Source: Dipodascopsis uninucleata var. uninucleata (Eukaryota > Ascomycota > Lipomycetes > Lipomycetales > Lipomycetaceae). From it: a DNA stretch of 64,000 nucleotides. Below the pieces are notes generated by a model. That model was not told the DNA's origin, made no database searches, and was given only the letters and a program-made list of their open reading frames with translations. The stretch spans positions 1,787,679 through 1,851,678 of the forward strand of contig JAJLTO010000001.1 of NCBI GenBank assembly GCA_030568195.1, in the 5' to 3' direction. Position 1 is the stretch's first letter. Each line of letters opens with the position of its first letter. Made by a program: the position numbers and the translations under genes. Positions 4,354 to 33,966 of this stretch are shown one piece after another.

Positions 4354-5961
4354 TTAAACTTTTTCTTCCTGAAGAGACACAGCGTCCACCTTTTTCTCAG
4401 AGAGACCCATCTCAGCTGCGAAAGTAGTGGATGGCTTCCACTTGGCTGAGGTTCTAGGAGAACACTCCTCCATCATCTTGTCAACCTGCTCAAGTGTAAG
4501 ACCCTTAGTCTCGTAGATTAAAAAGTAAGAGTAGACGAAGCAGCACGAGCAAAGAGCTCCCCAGATGAAGAAAACACGAGCGCCAAGGTTGCCTTCGTCT
4601 GTGCCAACCATATATGGAGTAATGACAGAAATAATACAGTTCCAGAGCCAGTTAGAGGCAGTAGAGAGAGCAACACCGTGCGACCGAATTGGAAGAGGAA
4701 AGATCTCGCCAATGATAACCCAAGCGCCTGGTCCCCAGGTAGAAGCAAAGAAGAAAATGTAAATGCAAATGAAAGAAATCATAGCCTTGACGGCCGACTG
4801 GTTGCCACCATCGGTGACACCAATAATGGCAATGATGAACTCGCAGACAAGCATACCAAGCGCACCATAGATCATAAGAGCACGGCGACCGAACTTCTCA
4901 ATAGACCAGAAAGAGATGGGTGTAGAGCAGACATTGACCAGAGTGGTGATAAGACTGATAAGGAATGAATTTTGGATAGTTCCGAGCTCCTGGAAGAAAG
5001 TAGTACCGAAATAGAAGATGAAATTGATACCAGTCCACTGCTGCATCATCTGCATAGAAGTACCGAGGATTGTTCGTCGCAAGTTGCTACTGGGATTTCT
5101 GAGAGAGCCCGAGAAGCAGTGCAGCCAGCTCTGCAAGTATCCACCCTGTGGAATCAACTGATTCTCGTACTCGTGGTTAGCGACAATCTCGGTAAGTTCC
5201 TGCTGAACATACTCAGAGTCGCGGGGCTGGCCACGGAGTCTTGCCAAGACAGCCGCCGCATCGTCCAAACGATCCTTCTTCACGTAGTAACGAGGTGATT
5301 CTGGAAGCAAAAAGATACCAGAAGCAAGAATGAGTGCCCAGGCCATCTGAAGAGCAATGGGAATTCTGTACGATCCAGAGTCCTGACGCTTCTCAGTACC
5401 GTAGTCAACACAGGAAGCGAGCAAGAGACCTATAGTTACGCAGAACTGGTAGCCAGAGACAAGAGCGCCGCGAACCCGTCGTGGAGCGATCTCAGACATG
5501 TAAAGGATAATGATGGCAGAGACGAAACCGACACCGAAGCCAGCGACGAGACGTCCCGCAACGAGAAGACCAAGGGACGAAGAAGCAGTCTGCAAGATAA
5601 CACCAATAATGAACACTGAGCAACCAGAGATGATAGTGAATCTCCGACCGAAGTAGTCGGCAAGATCACCTGCAATGAGAGCACCAAAAAATGTACCGGC
5701 AGAGAGAATAGATGTAATCAAAGACTTCTTCCACGCAGGAAGAACGAAGGCATCCGACGAGACAGCGTCCTTGTCGAGACCAGTGAGCATGTGGACGACA
5801 AAGTCCATGCCCATGACGCCACTAATGTATCCAGAATCATAACCGAAGAAGATACCGCCAAAGGCAGCGAAAGCACACATCATGTACGCTTTCAAGGTCA
5901 CGGGAGCCTCTATGCGGTCGACGGTGACAGCCTGAGTGAGTGTAGCACCACCACCAGCCAT
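4354..5961 (-). CDS. High-affinity glucose/hexose transporter (MFS sugar porter)
   Basis: A 535-residue plasma-membrane hexose:proton transporter with about 12 membrane segments. The start is the ATG at 5961, giving Met-Ala-Gly-Gly-Gly, which resembles the N-terminus of fungal high-affinity glucose transporters of the HGT1/MstC type. The open frame continues 9 bases further upstream only to a TTG. Sugar-porter signatures are all present: GYDSGYISGV in the first helix, GRR after helix 2, PESPRYYV at the end of helix 6, QQWTGINFIFYFGT in helix 7, and PETKG-like YETKGLTLEQVD at the end. Codons are strongly biased, which suggests high expression. Upstream is an exceptionally long GC-rich non-coding stretch. 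Transport of glucose is inferred from family. A sensor role is unlikely, because the C-terminal tail is short. Confidence 0.9.
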   Translation of the reverse strand: MAGGGATLTQAVTVDRIEAPVTLKAYMMCAFAAFGGIFFGYDSGYISGVMGMDFVVHMLTGLDKDAVSSDAFVLPAWKKSLITSILSAGTFFGALIAGDLADYFGRRFTIISGCSVFIIGVILQTASSSLGLLVAGRLVAGFGVGFVSAIIILYMSEIAPRRVRGALVSGYQFCVTIGLLLASCVDYGTEKRQDSGSYRIPIALQMAWALILASGIFLLPESPRYYVKKDRLDDAAAVLARLRGQPRDSEYVQQELTEIVANHEYENQLIPQGGYLQSWLHCFSGSLRNPSSNLRRTILGTSMQMMQQWTGINFIFYFGTTFFQELGTIQNSFLISLITTLVNVCSTPISFWSIEKFGRRALMIYGALGMLVCEFIIAIIGVTDGGNQSAVKAMISFICIYIFFFASTWGPGAWVIIGEIFPLPIRSHGVALSTASNWLWNCIISVITPYMVGTDEGNLGARVFFIWGALCSCCFVYSYFLIYETKGLTLEQVDKMMEECSPRTSAKWKPSTTFAAEMGLSEKKVDAVSLQEEKV

Positions 5962-6138
5962 TTTGTTCAAAGTGTGTGCACTGCTCGTAGGATATTTATG
6001 TAGAGAAGGTATGCGACAGCACCAGAGTCCTTACAGTGAATAGAACTTTTTAATTGTGCTTGCAGACCGAAAACGAGAAGAGGAACACCAGGGTGTATGA
6101 CTTCTATTTATTTGCCGTTTTTTCGTCCAATTCCCCGT

Positions 6139-6144
6139 CCCCGC
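6139..6144 (-). promoter_or_regulatory. Candidate Mig1/CreA-type GC box
   Basis: Read on the minus strand this is GCGGGG, matching the SYGGGG core used by Mig1-type glucose repressors. It lies 178 bases upstream of the transporter start, beside a second near match (ACGGGG). The motif is short and may occur by chance. Confidence 0.2.
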
Positions 6145-6206
6145 TGCCATATTTGCTGCAGAGTAGAAGGAAAGCTAAAATCTGGTGAGAAGGTGCGCTA
6201 GCCCGC

Positions 6207-6219
6207 CGAAAGACTTTCG
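6207..6219. repeat. Small palindrome CGAAAG-A-CTTTCG
   Basis: A 6-bp inverted repeat around one base. Its CCGAAAG half-element recurs at 7179, 7211 (inverted) and 7332 in the same upstream region. Confidence 0.5.
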
Positions 6220-6887
6220 TGGGGTTTACTAGACTAAATTGCGGAGCATATAGTACTTCGCAGTTCGCTCTAGCGCAAGTTTAGGTTTTATTTATAGCCT
6301 TAATGGCAGTAGCAAACTGTATCAATAAAGCTTATTTGCGGCTATCTGGTTACTACCATGGTAAGATAGCAGTGACATAATGATATTATTCTCCGGTGGC
6401 CTGTTCTGGCTATGCGTCTTTGGCAGCAGAGCAGTCACGACACAGGGCACACTACGTCAGTAGCAGTACGGCGCCTTCTGGCAGGATCCAGCTAGAGAGC
6501 CAGCCGTTACGCGAACAGGTAGCGGCGTCTCGTGCTTTACCACTTGCCGCGATTCTGGGTATTCTGTTTGCAGACGAAATTTTTTCCCGTGCACAGTTGC
6601 GAGATTCCGCTGCACAGCGACGTGCGCGAGAACTATTTTGGGAGAAAATGTGCAAACAGGGAAATCGCAGGGAGTAACATACTTTATTTGGTGCGGTATT
6701 TCTAATCGAGGAAAGAGGACCGAACGAATTACAGCGTGTCTTAACACAATGGGCTAGCATATGCACAGAGCGCAGTAGCCAAAGTCTGACCGTTAGCTCC
6801 TGCACCGCGAAGCGCACTAAATGGAGGGGCGGAAGACGACGGCCAGATCCTGCGGAAGTCGTCTAGGGCTCACCAGCCTAGCTCGTA

Positions 6888-7121
6888 CGCAGCAGCGGTA
6901 GCAGTGGTAAAAATGCAGAGGCAGCGCAGTTCTGGAAGGGCAGCCGACAGGTAGAGCGTCGTTGCTGGAGAGCAGCGCACGCTCGCAAGGAGCAGCCGCG
7001 AGCGCCAGCAGCAGTGCATGGGCAACACACGCAGCAGCGCGATACTGCAAGCGAGAAACTGCTAGCGCTTATCTCTGGACGCACTCGTCGCCTTGCGCAA
7101 ACATGCGAGCTCGCAGCAGCG
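6888..7121. repeat. Three copies of CGCAGCAGCG
   Basis: Exact 10-mers at 6888-6897, 7030-7039 and 7112-7121, embedded in a CAG/GCG-rich stretch. They could be binding sites or simply low-complexity GC-rich DNA. Confidence 0.5.
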
Positions 7122-7178
7122 GAGACTAGCCTAGCTACACGTAGACATGCCTGTCAGCGACCGGTTTAGCTCTGATAG

Positions 7179-7217
7179 CCGAAAGCAATGAAGACGGAAG
7201 TCTTTCATTGCTTTCGG
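7179..7217. repeat. Strong hairpin with a GGAA (GNRA-type) loop
   Basis: The left arm CCGAAAGCAATGAAGAC pairs with the right arm GTCTTTCATTGCTTTCGG (17 pairs, one bulged T), leaving the loop GGAA. A long stem closed by a GNRA-type tetraloop is more typical of a structured RNA than of a protein-binding palindrome. The plus strand would give the GGAA loop; the minus strand would give TTCC. Confidence 0.7.
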
Positions 7218-7320
7218 ATGTTGGTCGCAGTGCCCGGTGGGATAGGCAAGCAGAGCTGCCTAGTTGAGCTAGCATGTGCTGCAGGGCACTAAATATAGGG
7301 GCGGATATGCGTAGCAAGCA

Positions 7321-7332
7321 GCTAGCGCTAGC
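7321..7332. repeat. Perfect 12-bp palindrome GCTAGCGCTAGC
   Basis: Self-complementary over all 12 bases and immediately followed by another CCGAAAG element. Possible protein-binding site in the transporter upstream region. Confidence 0.5.
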
Positions 7333-8545
7333 CGAAAGCTGGTAGTCTGCGAATGATAATTTTCTTTTTTCCCAGAAATGTGCCGACGGAAAAATAAGAT
7401 TATACTAATTTCGCTATTATTGCTACCTGCCGTATGGAGCACACTCTGTGTACTGTATACGGTGTAGACTGCTTAGCGGCCCTGACTAACACAAAGCTTA
7501 TGTCCGCTACTCCTTCGTCGTCACTCTTTTTGTGCTATGCAAGCTGCATTGCCGTACTAGCCAGCGCTCGTGCATCCCAGCTGGGAGGATGCCAGAGTGC
7601 GAAGTTCGTGCCGAGCAACCCCACACGCAGCGGTCGCGAGGCTATCGCCGAGGCTATCTCCTCCTGCGTGTCGCAGAACAGCGGTCTCACCACTACAGGT
7701 GCAGCAGACTGATCCTTTCTTCGCGTGCACTCACGATGATTTGAGTCGACAGAAGCGCGCGTCCCAGGATGAGTAATAGGGTTGCGAGTATGCAAGAAGG
7801 GCACTGGTGCTAATCTGTACTGGGACTAGTGTGCGCTTAAGCTAAGCGCAAGCGCTGTGGCTTTAGAGTTAGACACATCCCACTTTGTCCATGGCTCCGC
7901 GCAGTAAAGTGCCGCGAAACACGCTGTAGTAAGTGCTGGCGGCATGCACCACCTCATAGGCGGCCCGAATTTCCCTAGCTTACTCTATGCAGTCGGAGTG
8001 CCGCTAAATCTTGCGCTACTTCGTCGGCAATCGGCATGCCTCTGACGTATGTAATGAAGTGCGAAAATTGAGCGAGAGTCATCGCGATATGTTTTGCGCA
8101 GGGCTGCTTCACCTGCAAACGGGACTCTAAGCGCAGTGCAGACGCTGCTACGCTATGGACGGGGACAGGAATCCTGCTGCTCTAACATGGTGTTTCAAAC
8201 GAGCAGCTCGCCTGGAGGTAGCACCCGTCCTCCGTCGCTTGCCGCACTTACACGAGTGCTGCTGGACCTACGTTTGCATGCGTACCGCGGACGCTCATAA
8301 GCTATGGCAACTGTTCGTAGACATGGGGTAGAGCGGTCCGCTAAACCTACAGTCTGTTTCGAGTGTATCGCGTAGTCCTACACTGCTACTGGTCACATGC
8401 ACATGTGCTGGCTCAGGGTAGTTGACTCCAGGAGAGCTGCAAAGTAAAAAAAAATTGTATATCAAGTATCAATTTATTGGTTAGAATGTTTAGCAGAGCA
8501 GCCTAGCTCAATACAATGAAGGACACTAGCTTCTGTTCCATTTGC

Positions 8546-10333
8546 TTAGTTCACCAAGATTACGAAGCATTCGTAAGGGCGCAGCGTGATGCATGTGTCT
8601 AGCGACACAGCGTCGTAGTTCGACAAGCACACTGATCCACTCTCTGCAAACTGCTTGTCCAAGCTCCACTTCACCTCCTCTTTTGTGAAAGACGACACGA
8701 CCAATGCAATCTTGTCTTTATACGTGCGCTTGTACACGAAAACCGACTCGTTGTCGATATCAATGCTCTCGTACACTCCGTAGACGAACACGTCCTTGTG
8801 TTCTTTTCGGAGAGCAAGAACTGACTGCCAGTACGAGTATACACTGCCTTTGACACCAACTTGCGACGCCGCGTTGCATTCGCGGTAGTCGTCGTTCACG
8901 TCTATCCAGGGACTGGCAGTGCTGAAGCCGGCGTATTCGCTGTCATCCCACTGAACGGGAGTCCTAGCATTGTCACGCGACTTCTTCTGCAGTTCTGTCA
9001 TAAAGACTGCCAGATCCTGCGCAGATGCCTGCCGCTCTTTCAGTGCCTGATAGGCATTAAGAGTTGCAATGTCGCGGTACCGGTCGATACTCCAGGTCTT
9101 GGGCACGTTTCGCATGCCAATTTCCTGGCCCTGGTATATATAGATGGTGCCGCACATGAGTCCAAAGATAGTCGCGACGACTTTCGCAGAGAGAAACCTA
9201 TAGTCATCTTCGTCGCATGCAAATCGCGATATAGAGCGAGGCTGGTCATGATTTTCCACGTAGATAGCGTTCCAGCCGTTATGTTCCTGCATGAATGTTT
9301 CCCATTTGTCGAAAATTCGCTTAAGCTCCGGGAGTTTCCATTCCTTGGGCAGATATTTGCCAATAGGAGGTATATCGATGTCGACGCTGTGATAATTTTA
9401 CTGTTAGCTTACACACATAACCCCAATACAAGCTAGAGCTACATACTGCTCAAAATTGAATATCATGTTAAGCTCATGACGATCAAATCCGACTGCTTTT
9501 ATAATTTCTTTTGGGTCCGTTACTGATGGCATTTCGCCTACGCTGAATGCATTATACTGCTCGAGTATCTTGCCAAGCCCAGCTAGATATTCATGCAGTC
9601 TGGGACCAGGAGCGTAGTATAGGGCACCTTCCTGGTAGGGGCTGTCAGGATTGATAATAGGTGCGTCTGGAAAATCAGGATGCTTGCTTATGAAGTTAAT
9701 GACATCCATTCTGAACCCGTCAACGCCTCGGTCGAGCCAGAATCTGACAATGTCATGCACCTCTTTAACCACTTTAGGATTTTCCCAGTTCAAGTCTGGC
9801 TGTTCTTTTGCAAACAAATGAAGGTAATATTCCTCGCTTGCTTCATCCCACTCCCATGCACTGCCTCCAAAGTACGATCTCCAGTTGTTTGGTGGCATTC
9901 TGTTTCCATCTTCGTCATACTTAGGCTTTTTCCATATATAGTAGTCTCTATGTTCACTTGATTTGGACGCAATAGCTGACTTGAACCATTCATGTTGGTC
10001 GGACGTATGATTTACGACCAGATCCATTAGAAACTTGAGGCCGCGAGCATGGAGCCCTTTGACAAGCTCATCTATGTCACTGAGCGTACCGTATTTTTCA
10101 TATATGTCCCTGTAGTCTGAGATGTCATAACCCATGTCAACCTGTGGCGAACGGTAGCATGGACAGAGCCAGACGGTATCAACGCCGAGGTCCTTGATGT
10201 AGTCCAGTTTTGATATGATTCCTTTTATATCACCAATACCATCGCCGTTGGAGTCTTTGAACGAAGCAGGATAAATTTGGTACACTGCGCATTCCTTCCA
10301 CCACACTGTAGTCTGTTCATAATTACTCGACAT
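8546..10333 (-). CDS. GH13 alpha-glucosidase, isomaltase (oligo-1,6-glucosidase) type
   Basis: Exons 10333-9447 and 9386-8546 encode a 575-residue intracellular enzyme, the usual length of yeast maltases and isomaltases. The start is the ATG at 10333; an upstream in-frame GTG at 10345 is not used. The catalytic triad is complete: nucleophile Asp210 in GFRMDV, acid/base Glu267 in VGEMP, and Asp343 in ENHDQPRS. The residue after the nucleophile is Val211. In Saccharomyces enzymes Val here marks isomaltases (alpha-1,6) and Thr marks maltases, so isomaltose-, sucrose- or palatinose-type substrates are more likely than maltose. No signal peptide is seen. It follows the TauD gene in the same direction. 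A related copy at 17254-19058 is dead, so this may be the main cytosolic alpha-glucosidase of the region. Confidence 0.9.
9387..9446 (-). other. Intron in the GH13 gene
   Basis: 60 nt on the minus strand: 5' site GTATGT, branch AAGCTAACAG, 3' site ATCACAG. Removal joins ...NFE and VDIDIPP through a His codon, restoring the family segment FEHVDID. Confidence 0.9.
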
Positions 10334-17253: not shown

Positions 17254-19058
17254 TCAAATGGTAATGTAAATCCGCCCTTCATACGGCTGCAGTAATTCGT
17301 GCTTTGGCGTTTTGTAGTTTCCAATCATCAGAGACATATCTTCAACCATATCAAGGAGAGGAGGGGCTGATTCTTAGTAGCAAAATTCAATACTATAATA
17401 GCCTTCTGCTTCTCTGATGTCTTGCTAAAACAGTAGACCTCTTCATTATCAAAGTCACGGTTATTATAACTTCCATGAATAAGTACTCCGCGGAACTGTT
17501 TTCGAACTTTTAGTGCATGCTTATAAAAAGACATTACACTATTCGGATCGTCCTGCTGCTTTGCAACATTGATTTCAGGATACAAATCGTGAAATCTCAT
17601 CCACGGAATTCCAGTTGAAAAACCTGAATTCCGTAAAGCATTCCATTGCGTCGGCAGTCTAGAATGATCACGTGCGAGTAACTGGAGTCCCATTGTTATC
17701 CGCTCAAGCCTTGAAGGATCGGATCCCATCTTCGAGACTCGTTCAGCCTCTATATAATATCCTTGTGCTTCAATATCCTTATATTCCTCTATGGGCCATT
17801 CTTTTGGGGCGTTGATCATTCCAATCTCTTGGCCCTGGTATATGTATAACGTGCCTGTGAGGCCAATCTGAAAAAGTGCTAGCATCTTGGCAGATACGTC
17901 TCTGAATTCGGCAGCGTCACAACCGTAAAGCGAGACCGCTCGACCATTGTCATGAATTTCAATAAAGACGGTAGTCCAACCAGTTCCATCTATGAACTTT
18001 TGCCATTTTGATGTTATACTCTTTAGATCAGTGATCTTCCAAGGCTGAGGGTCATATTTATCTTCGAGACCGGAACCCATACCTAAATGTATCATATCGA
18101 ACTGGAAAACCATATCCAATTCCTTCTCTTTGGCAGAGACGTACTGCAAGACCTGTTTTGGATCTGGAGTTAGTGACAACTCACCAACTGTGAAAGCATT
18201 ATACTGGTCGTACACCTTTGCCTTGATCTCCTTCAGATACTCGTGTATATTAGGACCATTGCACAACATCTGCGGAGCCGGCTGAATGAAGTTCTCAAGA
18301 TCTACAATTGGAGCATCTTTAAACTCAGTATATTTACTATACTTGTTTACAGTATCGACACTGAAGCCATCCACTCCTCTCTCTAGCCAGAATCTTATGG
18401 CACTGTTATAGATTGCTTCTCTTGTCTTTGGGTTGTCCCAGTTTAGATCAGGCTGTTCTTTTGCGTAGAGTTGAAGATAGCATTCCTGGGTAGTTTTATC
18501 CCAAGTCCAAGTACTACCGGCGAAGTAACTTCTGTAGTTAGTAGGAGACAGTCTGTTGCCGGTGATTGCCATATCGGGCAGGTCTCCAGAAATACTAATC
18601 TCTTTTGGGATTTGTCTTCGATGACCTGGACTCTTTGAACCAGCTGTGCTCGGTAGAAGGATGATTGATAACAAGATCCAAAATAATTTTCATTCCGTGC
18701 TCATGGCACGACGAGATTAATTGATCTATGTTATCCAGCGTACCATAAGGTGGGTATACTGCCTCGCAGTCTGAAATATCGTAACCCATATCATATTGTG
18801 GACTATCAAACATTGGAGATACCCAACAACGTCGACTCCGAGATCTGCTAGATAGGGTACCTTTTCTAGAATATCTGGAATGTCACCTGTGCCATCTCCG
18901 CCAGAGTCCTTAAAGTTTGCAGGATATACTGCGAATAGTTAATAATTATGAATGATCATTCCCCGCCGACTAATTGACATTTATTGTCATTTATATGAAG
19001 TACGAACCTGATAGATTACGGCATCCTTCCACCATTGATACCTAGGAGTAGTATCCAT
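17254..19058 (-). pseudogene. Maltase (GH13) pseudogene of a dead MAL locus
   Basis: Similarity to yeast maltases runs from an ATG at 19058 (MDTTPRYQWWKDAVIYQ) to a stop at 17254, spread over several frames. Lesions seen: a single-base shift near 18825 (inside DLGVDVVW), a TAG stop at 18595-18597, another shift near 18570, and a last shift near 17365 before the C-terminal segment IGNYKTPKHELLQPYEG. A stretch after the first 17 codons (about 19007-18930) looks like an intron with a poor 5' site (GTTCGT) and does not keep the frame. The active site has decayed too: the invariant Arg of GFRxD is Ser (GFSVDT) and ENHDQ is EIHDN. The gene diverges from the permease pseudogene as in classical MAL loci. 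Confidence 0.9.
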
Positions 19059-19888
19059 TTTAAACTCTTCTATCGTTCTGATGTAACCTTTCCTGACCGA
19101 GTACCAATGCAGTATAAATATTGAAGATGTCATTTGAGACCGCTTGGGTTTTCTTGTGTCACTATATCAATTCATATCGTTCCGTAATTATAGTGCCGTT
19201 TACGTAGCAGTGCAGACGCCATTTTCTGGTAGACGAGCATATCTTTGGTCCTCTCATTCGGTGCCTATTCGGTTTTTTTTATAGCACATACGTCAGATAG
19301 CTGTACTATTATAGTCGAACTATGCGTGATCTTTCAATATGAGTTGTCGAGGACATGTAAATACTGCGAAATTCAGACATCCCCGCGATTCTGTAATGTA
19401 AATAAACTTTGCAGACTATGCAACGTATAAAAGTCCCGACTAAGTGCCGGCTCTAGCCTTACCATGTCCTTAAATAGGTTGAAAATACCGACTAAAGCCC
19501 GACAATTGCTAGCATGACTCCAAGCGAAAGATTTCTTGGGGTATGCTTGGACATATCAATGTAAATAATGTTGTTTTGTGGCAAACCCCAGATATTTAGG
19601 AGTATCTTATTCTGCGGAGTCTAATTGTGGAGTTCATAGGACTGGGCAAATTTAGGTGACCGTAAGAATGTCAAATGTTTTTACTAGTGAGATTCTCTGG
19701 GGAAGAAAGTAAAATTTGGCTAGAAGACAGTCACCAGGCAAACTCAACCGAGTTATGGTAGGCAGACTGGCACAAAATGAATAAGAGCAAGCTCTTTGTC
19801 TAAATGTGAGGGCATCGAACAAAGTGTTGTCTATGCTTATCGCAGTGGGCGTTTCATTATCATATCTACATAGCGATTGATTTAGGTT
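19059..19888. promoter_or_regulatory. Former bidirectional MAL promoter
   Basis: An 830-bp region between the divergent maltase and permease pseudogenes, in the position of the shared MAL promoter of yeasts. I could not identify activator sites with confidence. No gene lies in it. Confidence 0.45.
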
Positions 19889-21403
19889 TTGCTATGTTAC
19901 TTCACACTGACAATAGCAAGTTTAGGCAAGGCAGAGACTGAAAGTAAGCATGATGCAGAGCGCCTGGCATCAGCTCTCGATAAAGTGGCAATGGCACATG
20001 GTGCAGAGAAGGCGACTGAGTATGAGCATCGTATGTCATTGAGGGAAGCGATAAAACAGTATCCTAGAGCAATTGGCTGGTCAATTCTGTTCTCCTCTGC
20101 CTTGGTTATGGAATGATATAACTTGGCCCTTCTGGGTTCACTTTATGCATCTCCGAAATTTAGAGAGAAATATGGAGAGTTCAGGGATGGCAGCTGGACT
20201 TTTCCAGCATCATGGCAGTCCGGACTCTCTAATGGCGCTCGCGCAGGAGAATTCGTTGGGCTTCTTATTAATGGAACCGCTGCGGAGAGATTTGGATTTC
20301 GAAAGACTTTCATCGGCTCTCTGGTCGCTATGACAGCGTTCGTTTTTGTGCTGCTTTTTGCACCAAATGTGGAGACACTTCTTGCTGGAGAGATCCTGTG
20401 TGGTCTCCCTTGGGGTGTATTTCAGACTTTGGCAGTGTCTTATGCGTCTGAAGTGTGTCCAATGTCCCTAAAGGCCGTACCTTACCACTTATATTAATAT
20501 GCGTTGGGTATTTGGTTAGTTCGTAGCTTCAGGTGTCAACCGAGCCTCAGTCAGTCGACCTGATCAATGGCCCTACAGGATACCATTTGTTATTCAATGG
20601 GTCTGGCCGATACCTCTCTTGATTGGAAGCCTATTTGCTCCAGAGTCTCCATGGTGGCACGTTCGTCATAACGACAGAGATGGGGCTCGCAATGCACTTA
20701 AAAAACTCACATCTTCCCATAAGGATGAGATGAGTATCGAGGAACGCTTGATATGATTGATTATACGAATGCTCTAGAGAAGGAAATCTCTCATGGTACC
20801 AGTTACTTGGATTGTCTGAAAGGAGTGGATAGACGAAGAACAGAAATTGTTTGTGGACTCTGGCTTGTACAAGCTATATGTGGTGCTTGTCGGACGAAGA
20901 ACGTTACATCTGACTGGTGTATCATTACTATGTATAATATTGTTTATTACTGGCTGTATTTCTTTCCCTCCAGACACCAATAGCGCCGCAATGTGGGCGG
21001 TTGGTGCGATGCTCATTGTGTTTACCTTTGTCTACGACTTCAGTGTTGGACCTGTTACATATGCTCTAGTATCTGAGATACCATCTACTAGACTTAAGTC
21101 AAAATCTATCGTCATTGCTCGTGCCTTATATAATATAAGTAATATTGTCGTCAATGTCCTAACACCTTATCAACTCAACCCTACAGCATGGAATTGGGGA
21201 ATAAAGGTAGCAGTCTTTTGGTCGGGTGCTGCTTTCTTATCTGTGACATGGGAGTTTTCAGACTTCCCGAACCAAAGGGGAGAAGCTACGAAGAATTGGA
21301 TTTGCTTTTTCAGAACCGTGTTTCTGCTAGGAAGTTCAAGGAGACGAAAATTGATCCTTTCCGACGCGACATTGAAATTTTTGAGAATGACGTTAAAGTC
21401 TAG
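19889..21403 (+). pseudogene. Alpha-glucoside (maltose) permease pseudogene
   Basis: The translation resembles MAL31/AGT1-type proton symporters. Conserved pieces in order are RAIGWSILFSSALVME, ASWQSGLSNGARAGE, ETLLAGEILCGLPWG, APESPWWHVRHND, FDFSVGP-like FVYDFSVGPVTYALVSEI, and a tail with LLFQNRVSARKFKETKIDP. Lesions: TGA at 20114-20116 (Gly codon GGA to TGA), a shift near 20475, TAG at 20517-20519 (Gln position), a shift near 20745, an internal deletion of roughly 50 codons at about 20885 that removes helices 7-8, and a shift near 21245. No in-frame ATG precedes the similarity, so the start is also lost; the left boundary is approximate. It is divergent from the maltase pseudogene and tail to tail with the activator pseudogene. 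Confidence 0.9.
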
Positions 21404-21471
21404 GCTCGTGCTGTCCGATTATGATGATTATTTCTTTCAACCTGTTCTGTAGTTTAGGCACGACATTTAAT

Positions 21472-23345
21472 TTAGTATAGTTGTTTCCAGTGATATATCT
21501 GTAAAATTCTGATATGCAACTGAGTATGCCAGTGTGCAGAAGGTACATCATCAATTGGTATTGTCATTCGTTTTAGTGGCTTTGAAGACTCGCATTCAGG
21601 AACGTACATATCGGCGAATATCTTTCCGTAGTTCAGCCACAAACTCATTTCAACATCATGAAATGTACTGTCAAAATTGTTCAGCCTTTCACTTTCAAGA
21701 GCTTCTTCCGATAGCACATCTGATGAAAGAGGAAGCGTCAGATGTCGGGATATAGAAGTCGTCAAAGAAGGGATATTCTGGCTAACTATAGAGAAAAGTA
21801 ACGGTAGGAATCTATCCTTTCCTCCTACAAGATCCGCTATCGTACGAAACATGCAATTTAAATAATCAATAGGGCCAAGCTCCATACCACCAGACGTCCA
21901 TCCGTCTGTAGACAAACATGACATGACATCTATAACAGTGCATGCTATGTCATCTATCTTTTCGGTCTACTAAATATGTCAGTAACCCTATATGTGTTAT
22001 TATCATATGCAACATACCAGACCAGCTCCATGTACATTCATACTCCATAAAGGAACTTTCCATATTGAAATACATAGATCTCGAGCAATTTGAAGAGGAT
22101 AACTGAAAGTTAATGATTCCTCGGCTGCTGTGTTCGAAAGATATCCCAAGGTCGTCGAAAGACTCCAGACCATTATACAAAGCCATTGCTGTGATATTCG
22201 TATATTAGCCACCTCGTTTTCCGATAATAGAGTACCTGAAGGAATAACCTTAAGAAACTTGATTCTCTATGTCAGCCATAGCCGATGCCGAAGTTGCTGC
22301 TGGCTGGTCTAAAGAGGTAGGCCCTGGCTGCGTCATCGATAAATTCCACAAAAGAAAAAATAAAGCACCAAATGGGCGGAAAATGTCAAGAAGCCCGAAG
22401 CTCGTAAGAGAAGGCGAATCCTCGAGAACAGGAGGTTCCAAGCTTATCTGCAGCGTCATAGGTCTGTGCCGTCTTATAGAGTGGGACCTGAGTAACGTTA
22501 GAAGACACAACTCACTCACTGCCTCTATAAATGCAGAGTATCGTTACCTTTCCGATATCAGAGTTACAAAAAATAACCGAGAAGCACAGTTTCTAATGGC
22601 AACATCAGCACTGAACTCATTACCGGCACAAACAATAAGAGTCGTAGTCTCGCGTAAAAAGAACCAGCCGCGAGTATGAGCACCAATGCCAACGTAGCAG
22701 CCATAGAGAAAGAAAGACGAGAGAATCTGCCTGAAACTGTAGCCGGAAGATATATCTAGTGAAGTTCGACAAGCCACAGCCTCGTCCAACAGGCGATTTA
22801 GAAGATCTGGATCGTAATCAAAGGACACCGGAGTCCTGCCCGACAGATAGACGTCTTGCCGTAACACACCGGTCTGGATCAATACTAAGGCACAAAATGA
22901 AGACACCACATAATGAGACCAGCGATCTACATTGATCGCCACTATTTCATTTTGGAGGATAGCCGTGTCGAGTATAGGAATGGTGGAATATAGCTCTTTT
23001 ATAAACAATTGCACACAAGTGGCAATGATATTTGATGATAGATTTGAAGGTGAGGAGAGAGGTGTGACTGACGCTAGACCCTCGCTTCTTCCCGCACTAG
23101 AAGCACGATTCCCGCTGAAAATGACGATCTTATATTTTGTAAGAGTCCTGCAGAAAGAGGCTGCGAAAAAGAGAGGTCCGATTGAGCAGCTAATAGGGCA
23201 GATAGTACAGGTGCAGAGGCACCTTGTCGACCCTTTCGCCTCCGGTGAGCGCTATACATCTAATTCCAGCTTTCAGACATCTCGAACAAGTGCTGGTACG
23301 GTCGCACTTTACCTTTCGAAACTTGCAACCATCACAGGACTGTTT
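21472..23345 (-). pseudogene. MAL/AmyR-type zinc-cluster activator pseudogene
   Basis: At 23336-23256 (minus) a full zinc cluster is readable: CDGCKFRKVKC, then CSRCLKAGIRC. Behind it, pieces of the AmyR/MAL63 regulatory domain follow in order in different frames: SGYSFRQILSSFFLYGCY and WFFLRETTTLIVCAG (22544-23014), RRHRPMTLQISLEPP (about 22460-22520), and a C-terminal part with FLSTDGW-like CLSTDGWTSGG and GPIDYLNCMFRTIADL (21472-21924). The frame changes at least four times and no start codon precedes the zinc cluster; the frame closes upstream with TAA. In intact MAL loci this protein switches on permease and maltase when maltose is present. Its 3' end faces the permease pseudogene 68 bases away. 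Confidence 0.88.
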
Positions 23346-24933: not shown

Positions 24934-27738
24934 ATGAGGAACTTTGCTAGTGCAGTTACTACTATTCTCACCTGTGTGTCGGCAGTGACAGCAGCTGCTG
25001 TTCCAGTCTCAAGCAGCAAGACTTCCACTTCTTGGAGATCTGAGCCTACGTTTGATAGTTCGGAAGCAGTTGGCGTTGCGCAGACTCCTAGTATTTATGA
25101 GCCATATCAAGGAGGCAATTGTCCTGGATACAAAGCAGTTAATGTAACTACCTGGTCTTCGGGTATGATAGCCAAGCTTGTGCTTGCTGGTGAGCCTTGC
25201 AATGCCTATGGAGTTGACTATGAGGTGCTTGATCTTGTCGTGACAAATGACAAGAAAAACAGACTTCATATTTCAATCACGGATGAAGGCGGTAAGAATT
25301 TTCAGCTCACAAAGCGACCTGATATCTGGACAGCTCCTTTAGTCACCGATGCTGAACATGTGTCTTCGGACAAGGCTGAATATATTTTCAAGTACAATGC
25401 CGAGCCATTCGAGTTCTGGGTGATGCGTAAGGACGATTACAGCATTCTCTTTGATACTCGAGGATATAATCTCATTTTCGAGAATCAGTACATTGAATTG
25501 TCAACGTCAATGGTCCCCGATTACAACATATATGGTATGGCAGAGACAATGCGTGGTATTCGTCTTGGCAATAATCTGACTCGTACTTTTTGGGCAAATG
25601 ATGATGGCTCTTTGGTAGATGGAAACATGTATGGCAGCCATCCATTCTACTTAGAGAACCGATACTCGAGTACGGGATGTACCAACTCTCATGGAGTCTT
25701 GTATTTGACTTCAGGTGGTTTAGAAGTACTTCTACGTGAGGACAGCTTGCAGTACCGTGCAATTAGCGGAGTGATTGATCTCTATATATTCACAGGACCC
25801 GATGCTATGTCCACACTGTCTCAGTACAACACTGCTATTGGACTTCCTGCTATGCCAGCATACTGGTCTCTCGGTTTCCACCAGAGTAGATGGGGTTACG
25901 AAAATGTCTCGACATTGGAGTCCGTTGTTGCTAAGTTCAAAGAAAATAATTTGCCTCTTGATACTATTTGGTCCGATATTGACTATCTGTACGAGTTCCG
26001 AGATTTTACTACAGATCCTGTTAGCTTCTCCCAGAAAGATATGCAAAAGTTCTTGGCCGGTCTTAAGGCTACTAATCAGCACTGGGTTCCAATCGTCGAT
26101 GCTGCAATTTATGCTGCGAATCCTGCCAATAGATCTGATGATTCTTATTACCCTTACTACAAGGGAACAGAAATGGATGTATGGCTTAAAAACCCCGATA
26201 TGTCAACATATATTGGTGATGTTTGGCCCGGATACACAGTGTTCCCAGACTGGGTAAATCCAAGAGCAACTGACTTCTGGGTTGAGTCGCTTATGAATAT
26301 GTCGATTTACCTTGGTGAAAAAGAACAAGGAACAACTTTTAGTGGAATCTGGATTGATATGAATGAAGTTTCTTCGTTCTGCGTTGGATCTTGTGGATCC
26401 GGCGACCTTGACGTCAATCCAGTACATCCGCCATTTTCGCTCCCAAATGATGCAGGTTCCGAAGTGACTATTTATCCTGACAATGTCACGACTCCTCTTA
26501 CAAAGCGCTCAGTTCCAGAATTTAACGTGAACTATCCTCCTTACGCTCTTAATAACTTTCAGGGTAATCATGATCTTTCTGGCCACATTGTGGGAGTTAA
26601 TGCAACTTCCGTTGATGGTACTCTTCGCTACGACATCTTCAATTTATGGGGCTACGGTGAATCGGTTGCCTCCTATAAGGCTCTTTCGCAGATCCGCGAG
26701 AACGTTCGTCCTTTTATTCTTTCTCGTTCCACATTTGTTGGTTCTGGAGCTGTCGCGGCACATTGGCTCGGTGATAATAATGCCAGATGGGACCATATGG
26801 CATACTCTATTCCAGGAGTCTTGACTTTCAACTTGCTCGGTGTTCCGCACGTTGGCCCTGATACGTGTGGATTCGGTGACAACACTGACGAGGAATTGTG
26901 TACCAGATGGATGGCACTGAGTGCATTTTTCCCATTCTATCGTAATCACAATACTTATGGCGCAAGATCGCAGGAGCCTTACATGTGGAATACAACAGCG
27001 GAAGCATCCCGAAGAGCTATGGCAATTAGATATCAGCTATTGCCATACTGGTACACATTGTTCTATGAAGCCCATACAAAGGGTACTCCAGTAGTACGAC
27101 CACTATTCCTTGAGTTCCCTGATGAGCCCAGTTTGGCAGATGCGGACAGACAATTCTTGGTTGGAAGTGCTATTTTGGTTACTCCTTCCCTTGATCAAGG
27201 TCAGACTACTGTGAATGGCGTGTTCCCAGGAAATAATGACACAATATGGTATGACTGGTACACGCATCAGCCTATCACTAGAAAGTATGGTGAGAATATT
27301 ACTCTCGAAGCCGAGTTGGAGCATATTAATGTTGCGGTTAGAGGTGGATATATTATACCAATGCAGGAAGGTGGTCTTACAACGGTAGAGTCTCGTCAAT
27401 CTCCCTGGCACTTGCTCGTTGCCTTAGATTCTAAGGGCGAGGCAACTGGAACTGTTTACGTGGATGACGGCTTGTCTATTGAGGTAGATGAGAGTCTTAT
27501 TGTCGAACTCTCTGCTAAAGAATCCACTCTCATTGCTTCACCATTTGGAAGATACGATGTCCAGCAACCTTTGTCAGCAGTCACAATCCTCGGTGTCAGC
27601 ACCAGGCCCAGTATTGTCAAGTTTGAAGGTCACTCGGCTAAGTTCAGTTTCGCTAACCATACTCTTACTGTATACGACCTTAAGACTGAGACCAAATCTG
27701 GGGCCTTCGCTAAAGAGTGGGAGCTCACCTGGAAGTGA
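24934..27738 (+). CDS. Secreted GH31 alpha-glucosidase / glucoamylase
   Basis: A 934-residue enzyme with an N-terminal signal peptide (about residues 1-21, ending SAVTAAAVP), as in extracellular GH31 glucosidases such as Schwanniomyces GAM1. The catalytic nucleophile is Asp475 in GIWIDMNEVSSF, and the acid/base is Asp614 in AHWLGDNNARWDHM. The N-terminal beta-sandwich includes GMAETMRG and LYIFTGPDAMSTLSQY. The barrel carries LGFHQSRWGYEN and LDTIWSDIDY. Many Asn-X-Ser/Thr sites fit secretion. It removes glucose from the non-reducing ends of maltose, malto-oligosaccharides and starch outside the cell. Codon choice is biased, so expression may be high. With the MAL permease and maltase dead nearby, outside hydrolysis plus hexose uptake could be the remaining maltose route. 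Confidence 0.95.
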   Translation: MRNFASAVTTILTCVSAVTAAAVPVSSSKTSTSWRSEPTFDSSEAVGVAQTPSIYEPYQGGNCPGYKAVNVTTWSSGMIAKLVLAGEPCNAYGVDYEVLDLVVTNDKKNRLHISITDEGGKNFQLTKRPDIWTAPLVTDAEHVSSDKAEYIFKYNAEPFEFWVMRKDDYSILFDTRGYNLIFENQYIELSTSMVPDYNIYGMAETMRGIRLGNNLTRTFWANDDGSLVDGNMYGSHPFYLENRYSSTGCTNSHGVLYLTSGGLEVLLREDSLQYRAISGVIDLYIFTGPDAMSTLSQYNTAIGLPAMPAYWSLGFHQSRWGYENVSTLESVVAKFKENNLPLDTIWSDIDYLYEFRDFTTDPVSFSQKDMQKFLAGLKATNQHWVPIVDAAIYAANPANRSDDSYYPYYKGTEMDVWLKNPDMSTYIGDVWPGYTVFPDWVNPRATDFWVESLMNMSIYLGEKEQGTTFSGIWIDMNEVSSFCVGSCGSGDLDVNPVHPPFSLPNDAGSEVTIYPDNVTTPLTKRSVPEFNVNYPPYALNNFQGNHDLSGHIVGVNATSVDGTLRYDIFNLWGYGESVASYKALSQIRENVRPFILSRSTFVGSGAVAAHWLGDNNARWDHMAYSIPGVLTFNLLGVPHVGPDTCGFGDNTDEELCTRWMALSAFFPFYRNHNTYGARSQEPYMWNTTAEASRRAMAIRYQLLPYWYTLFYEAHTKGTPVVRPLFLEFPDEPSLADADRQFLVGSAILVTPSLDQGQTTVNGVFPGNNDTIWYDWYTHQPITRKYGENITLEAELEHINVAVRGGYIIPMQEGGLTTVESRQSPWHLLVALDSKGEATGTVYVDDGLSIEVDESLIVELSAKESTLIASPFGRYDVQQPLSAVTILGVSTRPSIVKFEGHSAKFSFANHTLTVYDLKTETKSGAFAKEWELTWK

Positions 27739-28897: not shown

Positions 28898-31800
28898 CTA
28901 CTCAAACTGAGTCAGGATCTCGGTAGAGCTAGCATTCTCCACTGAGTAAATCTTTGGGGCCGTGAGAATGCCCATTGTACTTGTGACATACTCATACGAC
29001 CAATTAAAGCCTGAGCTGCGCCATACGCCAGGACTAAAATATTTCAACTCTGAATTGGGCATATGAATCGCTCCAAAGGGATTTTGATTATTGGCAAAGA
29101 CCTCTAGCCGAGCAACATGTTTTCCAGTCAAGAGAAAGCCGAGATCAAGCTGGAACGGTGGAAAGGCTAAAGGCTCGTAGTGTTTATCGTCAACAGAGAC
29201 CTTAATAAGTGGTGCCTTGAAATGTGGAATCTCTAACGCCACATGACCATCTTTTTTGAGCTCAAATGACGACTCGTATGTGACAGTTCCGGTATAGAAT
29301 GGAAGTTTTTGAAATGCCCAATCTCCCCAGTAGAGAGACTGCGGATACTCGCTAATCTCAATTTCCGCACCTTTGACAGTAACGCCAAAATTGCCAAGGA
29401 TATAAATTCTTTCAAGGTTTGTTCGGAGCCCGTATGGAATTTCTAATATTAGAATATGGACACCGGCAGCCAAGGTAGGTAGGTCAATGTCTTAATATCC
29501 TCATCAACAAAATAGCCCCGGGGGCTGCTCATATCCAAAGACTTGCCATCTACAGATACTTTCCAGTTTTGTCCCAGTTCAATAGCAAGAAGAGTATCTA
29601 CAAGTGGACATACTGTGTTGATTTTGTACTTAAGCTTTAGATCCCAAGTTTGCGTACCACGATTGAATTTGTAGTCAGACCAAGGTTGTGCAAACTGCTG
29701 ACCCTTTAGAGGTAGACCTAACTGTGCTCGTAAGGTATTATCAATCCGCAATATTTCTTCCACTGTACTCCACTCGGTGCATCCAAGTTGGTATTGAGCC
29801 ATATCCAAGAGTGCGACGTTAGGCATAGAGAGCGTGAACGTAGTTGGGGTTCTGATGTCGCATTCATATGTCAATTTTGTTTTAGAGACGACCTTTCTTT
29901 CAGGTGGCGACGTTCGTTTTGAGCCAGGTGAAAGTTTTAGGAGAAGACTGCCGGCGCTCGGAACAGTTCTAACAATTTTTGTTGTCCCACCTTCAATTAA
30001 CGTTGGAATATCTGAGATCTTCCCAGTCATTGTGTCCAACTCAGTTACGGACCAATGACCTGAGAACCTGATCTCACAGTCGTCCAGGCGTTCATATATA
30101 TCATGGCGCTCTTCCGCACCATGTTGACTGCCGTCAGTATTGCAAAATAAAGACATATCTGGAATCGCCGTCTACACGGATCTGGTGTAGAAGAACGCTG
30201 GTCGGTTTGCCACTTGATAGCCAGACTGAAATTTCTCTGTAAGGTTCGAGTGCTTCAAAAAGGGATTCGAACGATAATGGATAGCTGCAAGATGGATGGG
30301 TGGCAATCCAATTGACACATTCGTCAGAGCGCCTCCCATCAACATATCTAGGTGATTGACCAAAAAAGATTACCTTACCACCGGAACGTTCAAATTCTTT
30401 GACCATCTGAAGTGTGCTCGAGCGGATCGTAGTCATTACGGGAAGTAGCAAAACGTCATATGTGCTAACGCCGACTTTGAGCTTTCCACTGTCGATAGAA
30501 TAAGGAGTATGATTTGATTGAATGAGAGATTCACACACAAAATCAAAATCAATAAGGCCCTTAAGAAGCCGCTCTGTAATAGAATGAAAGCAGCTGTCGA
30601 GTTCATTACGCTTGAAATAAGTTTGATCAAGTGGCCCGAAGAAGAGCCAGTAGCTCTCGACCGGGTGGACTACAGCGACTCGCGCAAGAGGCTTGCCGCG
30701 CGTAAGAATAGCATTCACACGAGCAAAATGATCTTCGATGATCGGATAGTCTTTGTACCAGGGTGACTGGTAGTTAATTGAGGACGGAAAGTCTCTCTTT
30801 GCTTCTCCAGCGAGACTCACGAGACTCAGATGCGGGCATCGCAAGGTAACACCAAGAGCGGCGAGCCAGTCTCCCTGGCGCTTGTGTCCACTAAAGTCGA
30901 AAGTCCAATTCGTGACACCATACATTTCACAAAGTGTTCCCTTGCGTCCCATCTGGCGTGCGACAGACTGCGCCTGTTTGGCAGTTGTCAACTCCATCTT
31001 ATCCTGAAGAATGTCGATTCCAGGGTGGGCAAAGGCTCGATATGTCCGCATTGCTTCGCCCATTGCGGAAGACTGAGAAAGTAATGTTGGCTCTGGCATG
31101 ACATGACCTGTCAGAGACAGTCCATTATTGCTACACCAGGATGCAACTTCGTCAAGGAATCCAGAACAAAAGCGCTCGCATGCGTGGTCATGGAACCAAT
31201 ATCTAATCTGGGACAGGTCAGGTGATGCTAACTCGAAGAAGAGCTCTGGCAAATGCGCTACAATATCTACCCTATATGTTTCTTTGAAAGTCTTTTGGAA
31301 GTCGCTCGACCATGGCATAAACACATCTTCGGGCCGAGTTGCAAATTTCAGACTTGATTTGTGTGGAATTTGTGGTTCATCTGTGAACATGTATGAGATT
31401 GTCTTACCGAATTCGCTTTCGACTCTTTCGCGATACTTCTCGTGTGTTACCTCGAGAAACCGCTGAGTCGCTTTCTTATTCATTGTATCAACATATGTCT
31501 GCTTATTATACCACTCAGATGGTAGTGCTGTCTCCATATATGCGTACCAGATGACTTTCTTACTGCCCTCTGCTTCACCTAATTCTCGTGCATTGTTTGT
31601 CTGCGAGAGCTCAGTCGGGCAGTTGAGTAAGTCTTCTATGACCTTGTATGATATCAGATATCCATCTTCGTTGAGCTCCAGCTCAAAAGTTGCCAGTAAT
31701 TCTCCATTTTCACTTCGTGAAGGTTTCGCGTTGGCACCTCCCAAAAGCTTTTTAGATGCCCGCTTATCCCCATATTTGAAAGGTGTGAAAAGTACATGGG

Positions 31801-32110
31801 TTGCGCGAAACTCCTTATTTGTTGTCACCAAACCACCGGCTGCTCCAGACGGCCAACGATCCTCGTCATACAGGTGAGCTTTCATTCCTAGTTCCTTGGC
31901 TCGGTCTATACATGCTTTGACGAGATCTAAAAATTCGTCTCCCATGTACTCGGTTTCGAGTCCCACTCTTACATGGATGAAGAATCCTCCAAAACCCATT
32001 TGTCGGAGATAGTCCACTTGACGAAGCAACTGTTCTCGGTTTAGTTTATTATTCCAGCACCATAATGGCGCCCCTCTTTGTTCAATAACTGGTTCTTTGA
32101 ATGTATCCAT
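28898..32110 (-). pseudogene. GH106-like (alpha-L-rhamnosidase-type) gene with two frameshifts
   Basis: Three consecutive open frames on the minus strand (32110-30134, 30156-29449, 29473-28898) read as one protein of about 1,070 residues. The start is the ATG at 32110. The first part is a barrel with PLWCWNNKLNREQL, GGFFIHVRVGLETEYMG, HLYDEDRWPSGAAGG, an acidic MFTDEPQIP and GHVMPEPT; the last parts look like beta-sandwich, sugar-binding-fold domains. This arrangement is closest to GH106-type exo-glycosidases acting on rhamnosides, though the exact family is uncertain. A single-base shift lies in or next to a run of four T near 30147 and a second near 29472. The second returns to the first frame, so the shifts compensate each other. 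This is a recent pseudogene or two sequence errors. No signal peptide is visible. It diverges from a permease gene. Confidence 0.6.
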
Positions 32111-32353
32111 TTTAAAAGTATACGGTGATGATTTTTGTGCTCTTTCCCTCTTCTACTTGTTAAGATTTAACTGTGAATAAATGTCTTTTAAAAATGCGGA
32201 GCTTCGGAAATCCAAATAGTTGTGGGGTAGCCTCGGGAGATCATTAAGAGCTACGAGGATGTCGAGGAGCATAAATCTCTTGATATTATCATGAATAAGT
32301 TCCGTCAAATAAGCTATAAGGACTAACGAGATTGAATAATAAGATTGTCGGCG
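32111..32353. promoter_or_regulatory. Short bidirectional promoter, GH106-like / permease
   Basis: Only 243 bp separate the divergent start codons of the GH106-like gene (32110, minus) and the permease (32354, plus). Joint control of hydrolase and transporter is likely. Confidence 0.55.
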
Positions 32354-33966
32354 ATGGCAAGTGAAACTCAACAGAATAGAGTACTGGAGATGAAGGGAGA
32401 GGAGGAGTGGGCAGAAGGAAAAGAGTTGACTGCGGATGAGCGAGTGTATTCTCCGACAGCAACGAACTTGACATTTGCACAGGAGCTTTGGAGACGAAAG
32501 CGAATAGTCTTTTTTTGGGCATTATCTACGTTAACATGCTTAATGTCGGATTAGACAACGTTATTGGAGGACAAGTGCTCGGCTTAAGTGCATTTCGCAA
32601 AGCATTCGGATACAATTACAATGGATCGTGGGTTATTAAGTCCCAATATCAGTCGGCATGGTCAGGAGCTAGTGTGGGTGCGCAGAGCTTAGGCAACTAT
32701 ATCAGTGGATGGGTGGCAGATCGATATGGACATAAGACATCATTGATGATTTCAATATTAATATCATTGGCAGCCACATCGGTGATGATAGCAGCAAAGA
32801 ACATCGGTGCGCTAATCGCGGGCAAGACGATGGTGGGCCTCGGAGTCGGCTTCGTAGTCGCTCAGGCTGCACCATACGCGAAAGAGTTAGCTCCAGATCG
32901 ATTTACGGGCTTTGCAACTATTGGAGTTGGCACATTCTTACACATCGGACAGTGGCTTGGAGCGGGAGTGGTATGGATCACAGCTACTCAATTTCCAGGA
33001 GTGAATGACGAGCGATCCTTCCGAGTTGTTTTCGGGCTTCAATATGTGTTTGCTGTTCTTTTTCTAGTATTTTGCTGGTTTCTCCCCGAATCTCCATATT
33101 ACTGCGTGCGCCGTGGTAATGTCGAAAGAGCAAAGAAGATTCTGCGTTATATGTATGGACCTGAGCACGATGTGGATGTTCATGCTCTGTCGATAGAAAT
33201 TGAAATTGAACGTGCTCGTGAATCGGCTGCAGAAACAGGCTTCATTTTGCCATGGTTAAGCACGAACAGGCGTCGAACACTGATCGGAATATTTGTTATG
33301 ACGGGCCAGTTATTCAGCGGAAATTTGTTCTATCCATCGTACCAAACTTACTTTTATGAATTATCAGGAGTGAAAAATGCGTTCGCCATAACGTTCGCAA
33401 ACTACAGTATAGCATTGCTAGGCAATTTCTTAGCTTACAGTTTGGTTGATAAGCTTGGTCGCAGAAACCTTTATAATAATTGCATGCTTGTATGCGCAGT
33501 AACAAATGTCATCATGGGTTCGATGTACAAAGTGCAGGAATTTAACCAATATGCGGCTGGCTGCGTTGCGGTCACCTGCATTGCGGTTTGGAAATTTTCA
33601 TACATGTTTGGACTTTCTCCTGGCTCATACTCTATCCTCGGAGAGGTACCTACTTCAAAACTAAAGGCGAAGACAAACTCATGGATTAATATTGTGAACT
33701 CATTGGTGTCGTTTGGAATCAGCTACGCTATTCCTCCACTATACAATCCGGATGCAGCTAACTTGGGAATGAAGATGGGCTACTTATTCTTTGGCTCCTC
33801 TATGATCTACTTTGTTGTTGGCTTCTTTTGTCTTCCTGAGACCGGAGGACGAAGTGGTATGCAGATGGATGAGCTCTTTCAGGAACGCATTTCAGCTCGC
33901 AAGTTTGGAAAGGTCAAGTTTGACCCTGAGAATCATATTATCAAGGAAACTGTTGGACGTGTCTGA
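32354..33966 (+). pseudogene. MAL-type glycoside permease with a frameshift in a T7 run
   Basis: An alpha-glucoside/sugar proton symporter of the MAL31/AGT1 group, about 537 residues if continuous. The ATG at 32354 opens a 66-codon frame that ends just after the run TTTTTTT at 32510-32516. From there the family similarity continues in another frame to 33966. Features: LNVGLDNVIGGQVLG in helix 1, DRYGHK, GLGVGFVVAQAAPYAKELAP, LPESPYYCVRRGN, RLGRR-like DKLGRRNLY and a C-tail with DELFQERISARKFGKVKFDP. That tail matches the end of the dead permease at 21403. A single indel in a homopolymer may be a real recent loss, a strain polymorphism or a sequencing error. The substrate is inferred to be the product or substrate of the divergent GH106-like enzyme. 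Confidence 0.75.

What the first reader, a model, noticed from the sequence alone, without database searches (positions are those of the whole stretch)
17254..23345. Complete MAL locus decayed in place: maltase, permease and activator all pseudogenes
Seen directly: three neighbouring MAL-type genes in the classical order (divergent maltase and permease, adjacent zinc-cluster activator) each carry several frameshifts, stops or deletions. The maltase has also lost the Arg of GFRxD. Established: yeast MAL loci are this trio. Inference: selection on intracellular maltose use was lost here, while a secreted GH31 glucosidase (24934-27738) and a glucose transporter remain intact. This would be a shift from import-then-cut to cut-outside-then-import.
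Basis: partly seen in the sequence, partly recalled or inferred. Interest (0 to 1): 0.85.

Follow-up and report, generated by a model that had tools for sequence, protein, structure and literature searches.

The report
Decayed maltose-use gene cluster in yeast
Near a chromosome end of the yeast Dipodascopsis uninucleata lies a broken set of three genes for taking in and splitting maltose; a similar intact set survives elsewhere, but its enzyme looks built for a different sugar bond, so whether this yeast lost maltose splitting inside the cell is an open, easily tested question.

Summary
At about 17.26-23.35 kb lie relics of a GH13 maltase, an alpha-glucoside-type permease and a Zn(2)Cys(6) regulator, in MAL order. 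Setting aside three intron-like stretches, I count 3 frameshifts + 1 stop in the maltase, 4 frameshifts + 2 stops + about 43 missing codons in the permease, and 3 frameshifts in the regulator; intact paralogues aligned the same way show none outside introns. The maltase lacks an Arg present in 233 of 233 relatives.

The genome (D. uninucleata by a 100% protein match) keeps an intact trio on contig C5, and an intact second GH13 alpha-glucosidase lies in the window at 8546-10333, not mentioned in the finding. Yet both intact enzymes carry the V216-I217 'isomaltase' signature and the relic the T216-V217 'maltase' signature; the fourth copy (C17, S216-M217) has an in-frame stop. So no intact GH13 gene with a maltase signature was found in this 16.2-Mb assembly. 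Loss of intracellular maltase is plausible but untested by growth; a shift to outside cutting is not shown. Known kind: a cluster decayed in place.

The parts
17260..19058 (-). Maltase relic (GH13, T216-V217 clade): 3 frameshifts, 1 stop, Arg of xRxD and Asn of NHD replaced; intron-like stretch about 19007-18941
19991..21388 (+). Alpha-glucoside-type permease relic: 4 frameshifts, 2 stops, about 43 codons missing
21574..23345 (-). Zn(2)Cys(6) regulator relic, 3 frameshifts; intron-like stretches 22547-22488 and 22017-21967; 6 of 16 database hits share organism and contig length with a listed maltase hit
19059..19990 (.). Divergent intergenic region between the maltase and permease relics (shared promoter inferred)
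   Evidence: from the coordinates
8546..10333 (-). Intact second GH13 alpha-glucosidase, 575 aa, one 60-bp intron (9387-9446), V216-I217 isomaltase signature; not mentioned in the finding
24934..27738 (+). Intact GH31 alpha-glucosidase-type gene, 934 aa, WIDMNE and LGDN motifs; start looks like a signal peptide (by eye)
4354..5961 (-). Intact sugar transporter, 535 aa (PF00083), presumably the 'glucose transporter' of the finding; substrate not tested

Best explanation
This is a MalT-type MAL cluster (maltase, divergent alpha-glucoside permease, adjacent Zn-cluster regulator) that decayed in place 40-47 kb from the end of contig C1 of Dipodascopsis uninucleata. In its working state a regulator of the MAL kind would have switched on permease and maltase, and maltose would have been imported and split in the cytosol (inferred from family knowledge). 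All three parts are now dead, and no close second copy of the cluster was found in the assembly. What remains for importing and cutting alpha-glucosides is a separate intact trio on C5 and a lone enzyme at 8546-10333, both with the isomaltase-type active-site signature. Selection on the maltose module was relaxed; the most likely reason is that secreted enzymes (GH31, GH15) and the remaining alpha-glucoside systems made it dispensable (inferred). Shown: decay of all three, intact relatives elsewhere, signature residues. Inferred: substrates, cause of loss, phenotype.
For: Lesions in all three genes with clean controls; lesion counts of 4, 7 and 3 fit one common rate (chi-square p = 0.25, small counts). 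The relic breaks 12 of 134 columns that are at least 98% conserved in its clade; the largest count in 114 clade members, each left out in turn, is 8; C5 has 0 of 76 and window 8546-10333 1 of 76 in their own clade. The relic lies inside the T216-V217 clade: 31 rows, SH-aLRT 100; 30 rows, 100/100. C5 and the window enzyme are sisters in the V-I/A-I clade. Conserved partnership in other fungi: best maltase hit P0122 (AJ79_07446) and best regulator hit P0241 (AJ79_07448) are both Helicocarpus griseus on a 72,608-bp contig; likewise Polytolypa AJ80_09515 and AJ80_09513. Two whole-assembly searches show four GH13 alpha-glucosidase loci: relic, C5, window 8546, C17 (the tool scores best candidates only). 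No DNA copy of the relic beyond three short 67-77% stretches. C5 trio intact.
Against: No growth data on maltose were found. The signature rule rests on a handful of enzymes, and a V-type enzyme could cut maltose weakly. The regulator's frameshifts lie partly in poorly conserved stretches and its references are only 42-43% identical; against the C5 regulator the match is 26.5% over 374 residues with 2 frameshifts and 2 stops, one of the stops in the stretch I call an intron, so its lesion count is the least certain. C17 carries S216-M217, which the rule does not cover. Intact relatives of the permease remain (C5, C4, C15, C18, C6, and C17 with one intron), so uptake need not be lost.
Confidence: 0.75

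Rival explanations
1. Spare copy: the relic is one of several redundant subtelomeric alpha-glucoside clusters, as in Lipomyces starkeyi with eight, and its loss changed nothing in maltose use.
For: Intact trio on C5 and an intact enzyme in the window. Eight MAL clusters reported in L. starkeyi (PMC6070925, passages). Related permeases on C5, C4, C6, C17 and C21 lie within 30 kb of a contig end; those on C15 and C18 lie about 42-56 kb away.
Against: The intact enzymes differ in the residue that decides maltose against isomaltose and are only 38-40% identical to the relic over its open frame, so they are not copies of it.
Confidence: 0.35
2. One reading: the lineage changed from import-then-cut to cut-outside-then-import for maltose, with the GH31 enzyme at 24934-27738 doing the cutting.
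For: Intact GH31 with catalytic motifs and a signal-like start, a GH15 gene on C5, an intact sugar transporter.
Against: Intracellular and putative extracellular enzymes coexist in B. adeninivorans (PMC6981392, passages), so no switch need have happened; the GH31 substrate is unknown (PDB relatives include maltase-glucoamylase, sucrase-isomaltase and lysosomal alpha-glucosidase); an isomaltase-type import system is kept.
Confidence: 0.2
3. Assembly or sequencing errors make working genes look broken.
For: Two other genes nearby show what look like single frame breaks (about 30.15 kb and 32.5 kb), which could be indel errors.
Against: Many breaks within one 6-kb stretch, about 43 missing codons, and replaced invariant residues. 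A D. uninucleata protein, P0121, from a contig of another length (1,855,108 against 1,851,678) keeps the same residues, 363 of 363 outside gaps, and skips stretches of the relic; whether its reads are independent is unknown.
Confidence: 0.03

Closest known systems
Aspergillus oryzae malP-malT-malR cluster (PMC8180590 and PMC6070925, passages)
   Same: Same three kinds of gene; MalT has the T216-V217 motif like the relic; an A. oryzae T-V protein (P0134) is 60-61% identical to the relic. That P0134 is MalT itself was not checked.
   Different: The relic is dead; orthology of its regulator to MalR was not tested.
Lipomyces starkeyi MAL clusters and AG1 (PMC6070925, PMC6981392)
   Same: Same yeast family; AG1 signature YTVNKLSHE, and the relic shows TVNK and LS at the matching motifs. 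L. kononenkoae P0128 and L. orientalis P0139 are full-length T-V proteins (582 aa).
   Different: L. starkeyi keeps predicted maltases; in this D. uninucleata assembly I found no intact gene with a maltase signature.
Blastobotrys adeninivorans BaAG2 (PDB 7p01)
   Same: T next to the nucleophile; a proven maltase that does not cut isomaltose; best PDB match of P0128, the Lipomyces relative of the relic.
   Different: Working enzyme; no MAL cluster was found in its genome (PMC6070925 abstract).
GAL genes decayed in place in Saccharomyces kudriavzevii (recalled; only a search listing seen)
   Same: A sugar pathway left as pseudogenes at its old place.
   Different: There a whole pathway is lost (recalled); here related alpha-glucoside systems remain.

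Membership tests
Fungal MAL cluster (maltase, permease, activator) | GH13 alpha-glucosidase gene | tested here: met
   PF00128, E = 6e-81, open stretch 17328-18572
Fungal MAL cluster (maltase, permease, activator) | Divergent alpha-glucoside permease next to it | tested here: met
   57% identity to the C5 permease, opposite strand, 0.9 kb apart. That these permeases carry alpha-glucosides is inferred from the neighbourhood.
Fungal MAL cluster (maltase, permease, activator) | Adjacent Zn(2)Cys(6) regulator | tested here: met
   Six-cysteine pattern readable near 23345-23255 (by eye); 13 of 16 database hits carry PF00172. Two pieces of the relic given to Pfam alone matched nothing.
Fungal MAL cluster (maltase, permease, activator) | Genes functional | tested here: not met
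   All three broken: a relic, not a working member
MalT/BaAG2-type maltase | T216-V217 next to the nucleophile | tested here: met
   FSVDTVNK in the relic; T-V in 114 of 233 relatives; the 30 of them put into the trees form one clade with the relic (29 of them)
MalT/BaAG2-type maltase | Complete catalytic motifs | tested here: not met
   Nucleophile, VGE Glu and NHD Asp kept; Arg of xRxD and Asn of NHD lost
MalR/MAL activator orthologue | Orthology to MalR | not tested
   Only linkage with maltases in other fungi seen
Isomaltase (oligo-1,6-glucosidase), for the intact C5 and 8546-10333 enzymes | V216-I217 signature | tested here: met
   RMDVIN in both; rule from PMC6070925 section 3.5
Isomaltase (oligo-1,6-glucosidase), for the intact C5 and 8546-10333 enzymes | Cuts isomaltose, not maltose | not testable with these tools
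   Needs an enzyme assay

The most novel reading that the evidence does not exclude
D. uninucleata has lost every intracellular alpha-1,4 maltase (the MalT-type gene and the C17 copy both broken) while keeping an intact import-and-cut system for alpha-1,6 sugars, so that maltose now reaches the cell only as glucose freed by secreted enzymes. This would be a natural split of maltose from isomaltose use by decay of one cluster and retention of a sister system.
Probability: 0.4. Interest if true: 0.5.

Novelty: new member of a known kind. Interest (0 to 1): 0.38.

Why it matters
A dead three-gene cluster beside live relatives with a different active-site signature gives a clean natural test of whether such signatures predict which sugars a yeast can split inside the cell, in an early branch of the budding yeasts. 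It also shows a public gene model (P0121) that reads a pseudogene as a protein.

Tried and rejected
Assembly error as sole cause: rejected by intact controls and lost invariant residues. Intact maltase elsewhere: intact GH13 alpha-glucosidases exist, but with another signature. Recent segmental copy: no close DNA copy found. Gene transfer from filamentous fungi: the maltase relic is nearest by identity to Onygenales (65%), but the trees do not settle its place; the quick tree put it beside a set of other filamentous fungi (SH-aLRT 86), the careful tree beside Lipomyces at 29/16 support, and grouping with Onygenales is not rejected (p-AU 0.337). The regulator search returned no named budding-yeast hit among 16, but only 7,992 candidates were scored. 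Left open. dN/dS of the relics: no DNA of orthologues was at hand; for the C5/8546 pair dN is 0.24 and dS could not be computed (NG86 returned -1, YN00 failed), so no ratio is given. Growth data: searches gave none; of the 28 papers listed I opened only PMC11024372 (passages; no word on maltose), and PMC8532513, listed, was not opened. Telomere repeat at the contig end: none seen by eye in the last 400 bases. Loci L009, L015-L018 were fetched and not analysed.

Results against my reading: the C5 trio is complete, so 'lost MAL' is formally wrong; C17 is outside the signature rule; the regulator lesions are the weakest (42-43% references; 26.5% to the C5 regulator). At the 95% conservation level one of 114 clade members has as many violations as the relic (12 of 153; largest 13). 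In one search gap columns inflated the relic's count; I recounted substitutions only, over 385 residues. The trees use 64 and 33 rows, chosen by hand for spread, of the 238 rows aligned. From that alignment P0121 and 5 proteins of 450 aa or less were left out.
Full report
What and where. The window is bases 1,787,679-1,851,678 of contig C1 in an unnamed 16.2-Mb, 25-contig genome; C1 is 1,851,678 bases long, so the window ends at the contig end. The C5 alpha-glucosidase of this genome is 100% identical to a Dipodascopsis uninucleata protein (P0001), which names the species; strain unknown.

Observation. Read with a frameshift-aware protein-to-DNA alignment of my own, the maltase relic (65% to P0122) has three frameshifts and one stop, the permease relic (57% to the C5 permease) four frameshifts, two stops and about 43 missing codons, and the regulator relic (42-43% to P0241 and P0243) three frameshifts once intron-like stretches are set aside. 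For the regulator the raw output was four frameshifts and one stop with P0241, and five and one with P0243; I set aside the stop and the pair near 22014/21957 as introns, by eye. For the maltase I used two references and for the permease three, with the same stops and nearly the same breaks.

Controls. The C5 enzyme (against P0122) and the permeases on C4, C15, C18 and C6 (against the C5 permease) gave no frameshift and no stop; the window enzyme 8546-10333 gave no frameshift and two stops inside its intron; the C17 permease (two frameshifts) and C17 regulator (one frameshift, four stops) gave breaks that coincide with intron-like stretches, judged by eye. The C17 enzyme gave one stop against P0122, with the last 47 residues of P0122 unaligned, and one stop plus two frameshifts against C5. 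The C21 permease gave two frameshifts and may itself be broken. The relic regulator against the C5 regulator matched only 26.5% over 374 residues, with two frameshifts and two stops.

Decay beyond frame. Over 385 residues of the maltase relic's open stretch, 12 of 134 columns that are at least 98% conserved among 114 clade members are replaced; no member, left out in turn, has as many (largest 8). At the 95% level the relic has 12 of 153 and one member has as many or more (largest 13). The C5 and 8546-10333 enzymes have 0 and 1 of 76 in their own set of 116 at 98%. Arg of the xRxD motif is Ser in the relic and Arg in 233 of 233 relatives; Asn of NHD is Ile, against Asn in 232 of 233.

What it was. 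The relic carries T216-V217, shared by 114 of 233 relatives, including L. kononenkoae and L. orientalis proteins; the 30 of these put into the first tree form one clade with it at SH-aLRT 100. PMC6070925 (section 3.5 read) assigns T216-V217 to maltases, A. oryzae MalT and L. starkeyi AG1 and AG6 among them, A216-I217 to predicted maltases, and V216-I217 to isomaltases; BaAG2, also T-V, cuts maltose and not isomaltose (PMC6981392, abstract and passages). Among 16 hits of the regulator read-through, 6 share organism and contig length with one of the 120 listed maltase hits: Helicocarpus, Polytolypa, Penicillium argentinense, Aspergillus steynii, A. melleus, A. alliaceus. In Helicocarpus and Polytolypa the locus tags differ by two, leaving room for one gene between, as in the window; for the three on contigs above 2 Mb the shared contig says little about distance. 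Both hit lists are capped, so the other 10 are not evidence against linkage. In A. oryzae, malR, malT and malP form a cluster and MalR controls both others (PMC8180590, passages).

What remains in the genome. PF00128 and P0128 searches show four alpha-glucosidase loci: relic; C5 (574 aa, intact); window 8546-10333 (575 aa, one 60-bp intron, intact); C17 (one TGA inside, disturbed end). The tool scores best candidates only, and the further PF00128 matches on C2, C1:602464 and C5:621063 are partial and were not characterised. On C5 the order is regulator (minus, 1331976-1334036), permease (minus, 1336084-1337748), enzyme (plus, 1338884-1340608); in the relic the order is the same, but permease and regulator are tail to tail instead of on one strand. 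C5 and 8546-10333 both read V216-I217; C17 reads S-M. GH31: five matches, which I read as four loci, one in the window; GH15: one match.

How it works and what was lost. Family knowledge says a MAL regulator switches on permease and maltase, and the sugar is imported and then cut. With all three dead, that route is gone. The C5 trio should still import and cut some alpha-glucoside, by signature an isomaltose-like one (inferred). Whether maltose is still used, and by which enzyme, is unknown.

Timing (inference). Lesion counts of 4, 7 and 3 in alignments of about 1.7, 1.4 and 1.6 kb fit one common rate (p = 0.25, rough lengths and small counts), which agrees with, but does not prove, one shared loss of function.

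Known or new. A sugar-use cluster decayed in place is a known kind of thing. I found no paper on MAL decay in Dipodascopsis (searches, titles and abstracts as listed; the library lacks most subscription journals).

Noticed in passing
window 32350-33966 (+): A sugar permease (476-aa frame) whose likely first part (MASETQQNR...FFWALSTLTCLM) lies in another frame directly before it: one frame break, either a young pseudogene or an assembly error.
   Followed up: partly
window 29449-32110 (-): A protein weakly like GH106 alpha-L-rhamnosidase (E = 7e-6, below Pfam's cut-off) is split into two overlapping frames near 30.15 kb.
   Followed up: partly
window 6031-8545: A stretch of high G+C (52% at 6001-8000, neighbours 47-48%, most of the window near 40%) without long frames; no second copy found in this assembly.
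   Followed up: partly
L005:3332-5053: C17 GH13 alpha-glucosidase with one in-frame TGA and a disturbed end, S216-M217, beside a regulator without breaks outside intron-like stretches and a GH32-like frame (family named by eye).
   Followed up: partly
L014:5157-6654 (-): C21 alpha-glucoside-type permease with two frame breaks.
   Followed up: partly
window 17328-19058 (P0121): A public D. uninucleata protein of 475 aa is a gene model over the maltase relic that leaves out stretches of it, among them broken parts and the one with the VGE motif: a pseudogene annotated as a protein.
   Followed up: yes
window 40929-41840 (-): 303-aa frame without any Pfam match.
   Followed up: no
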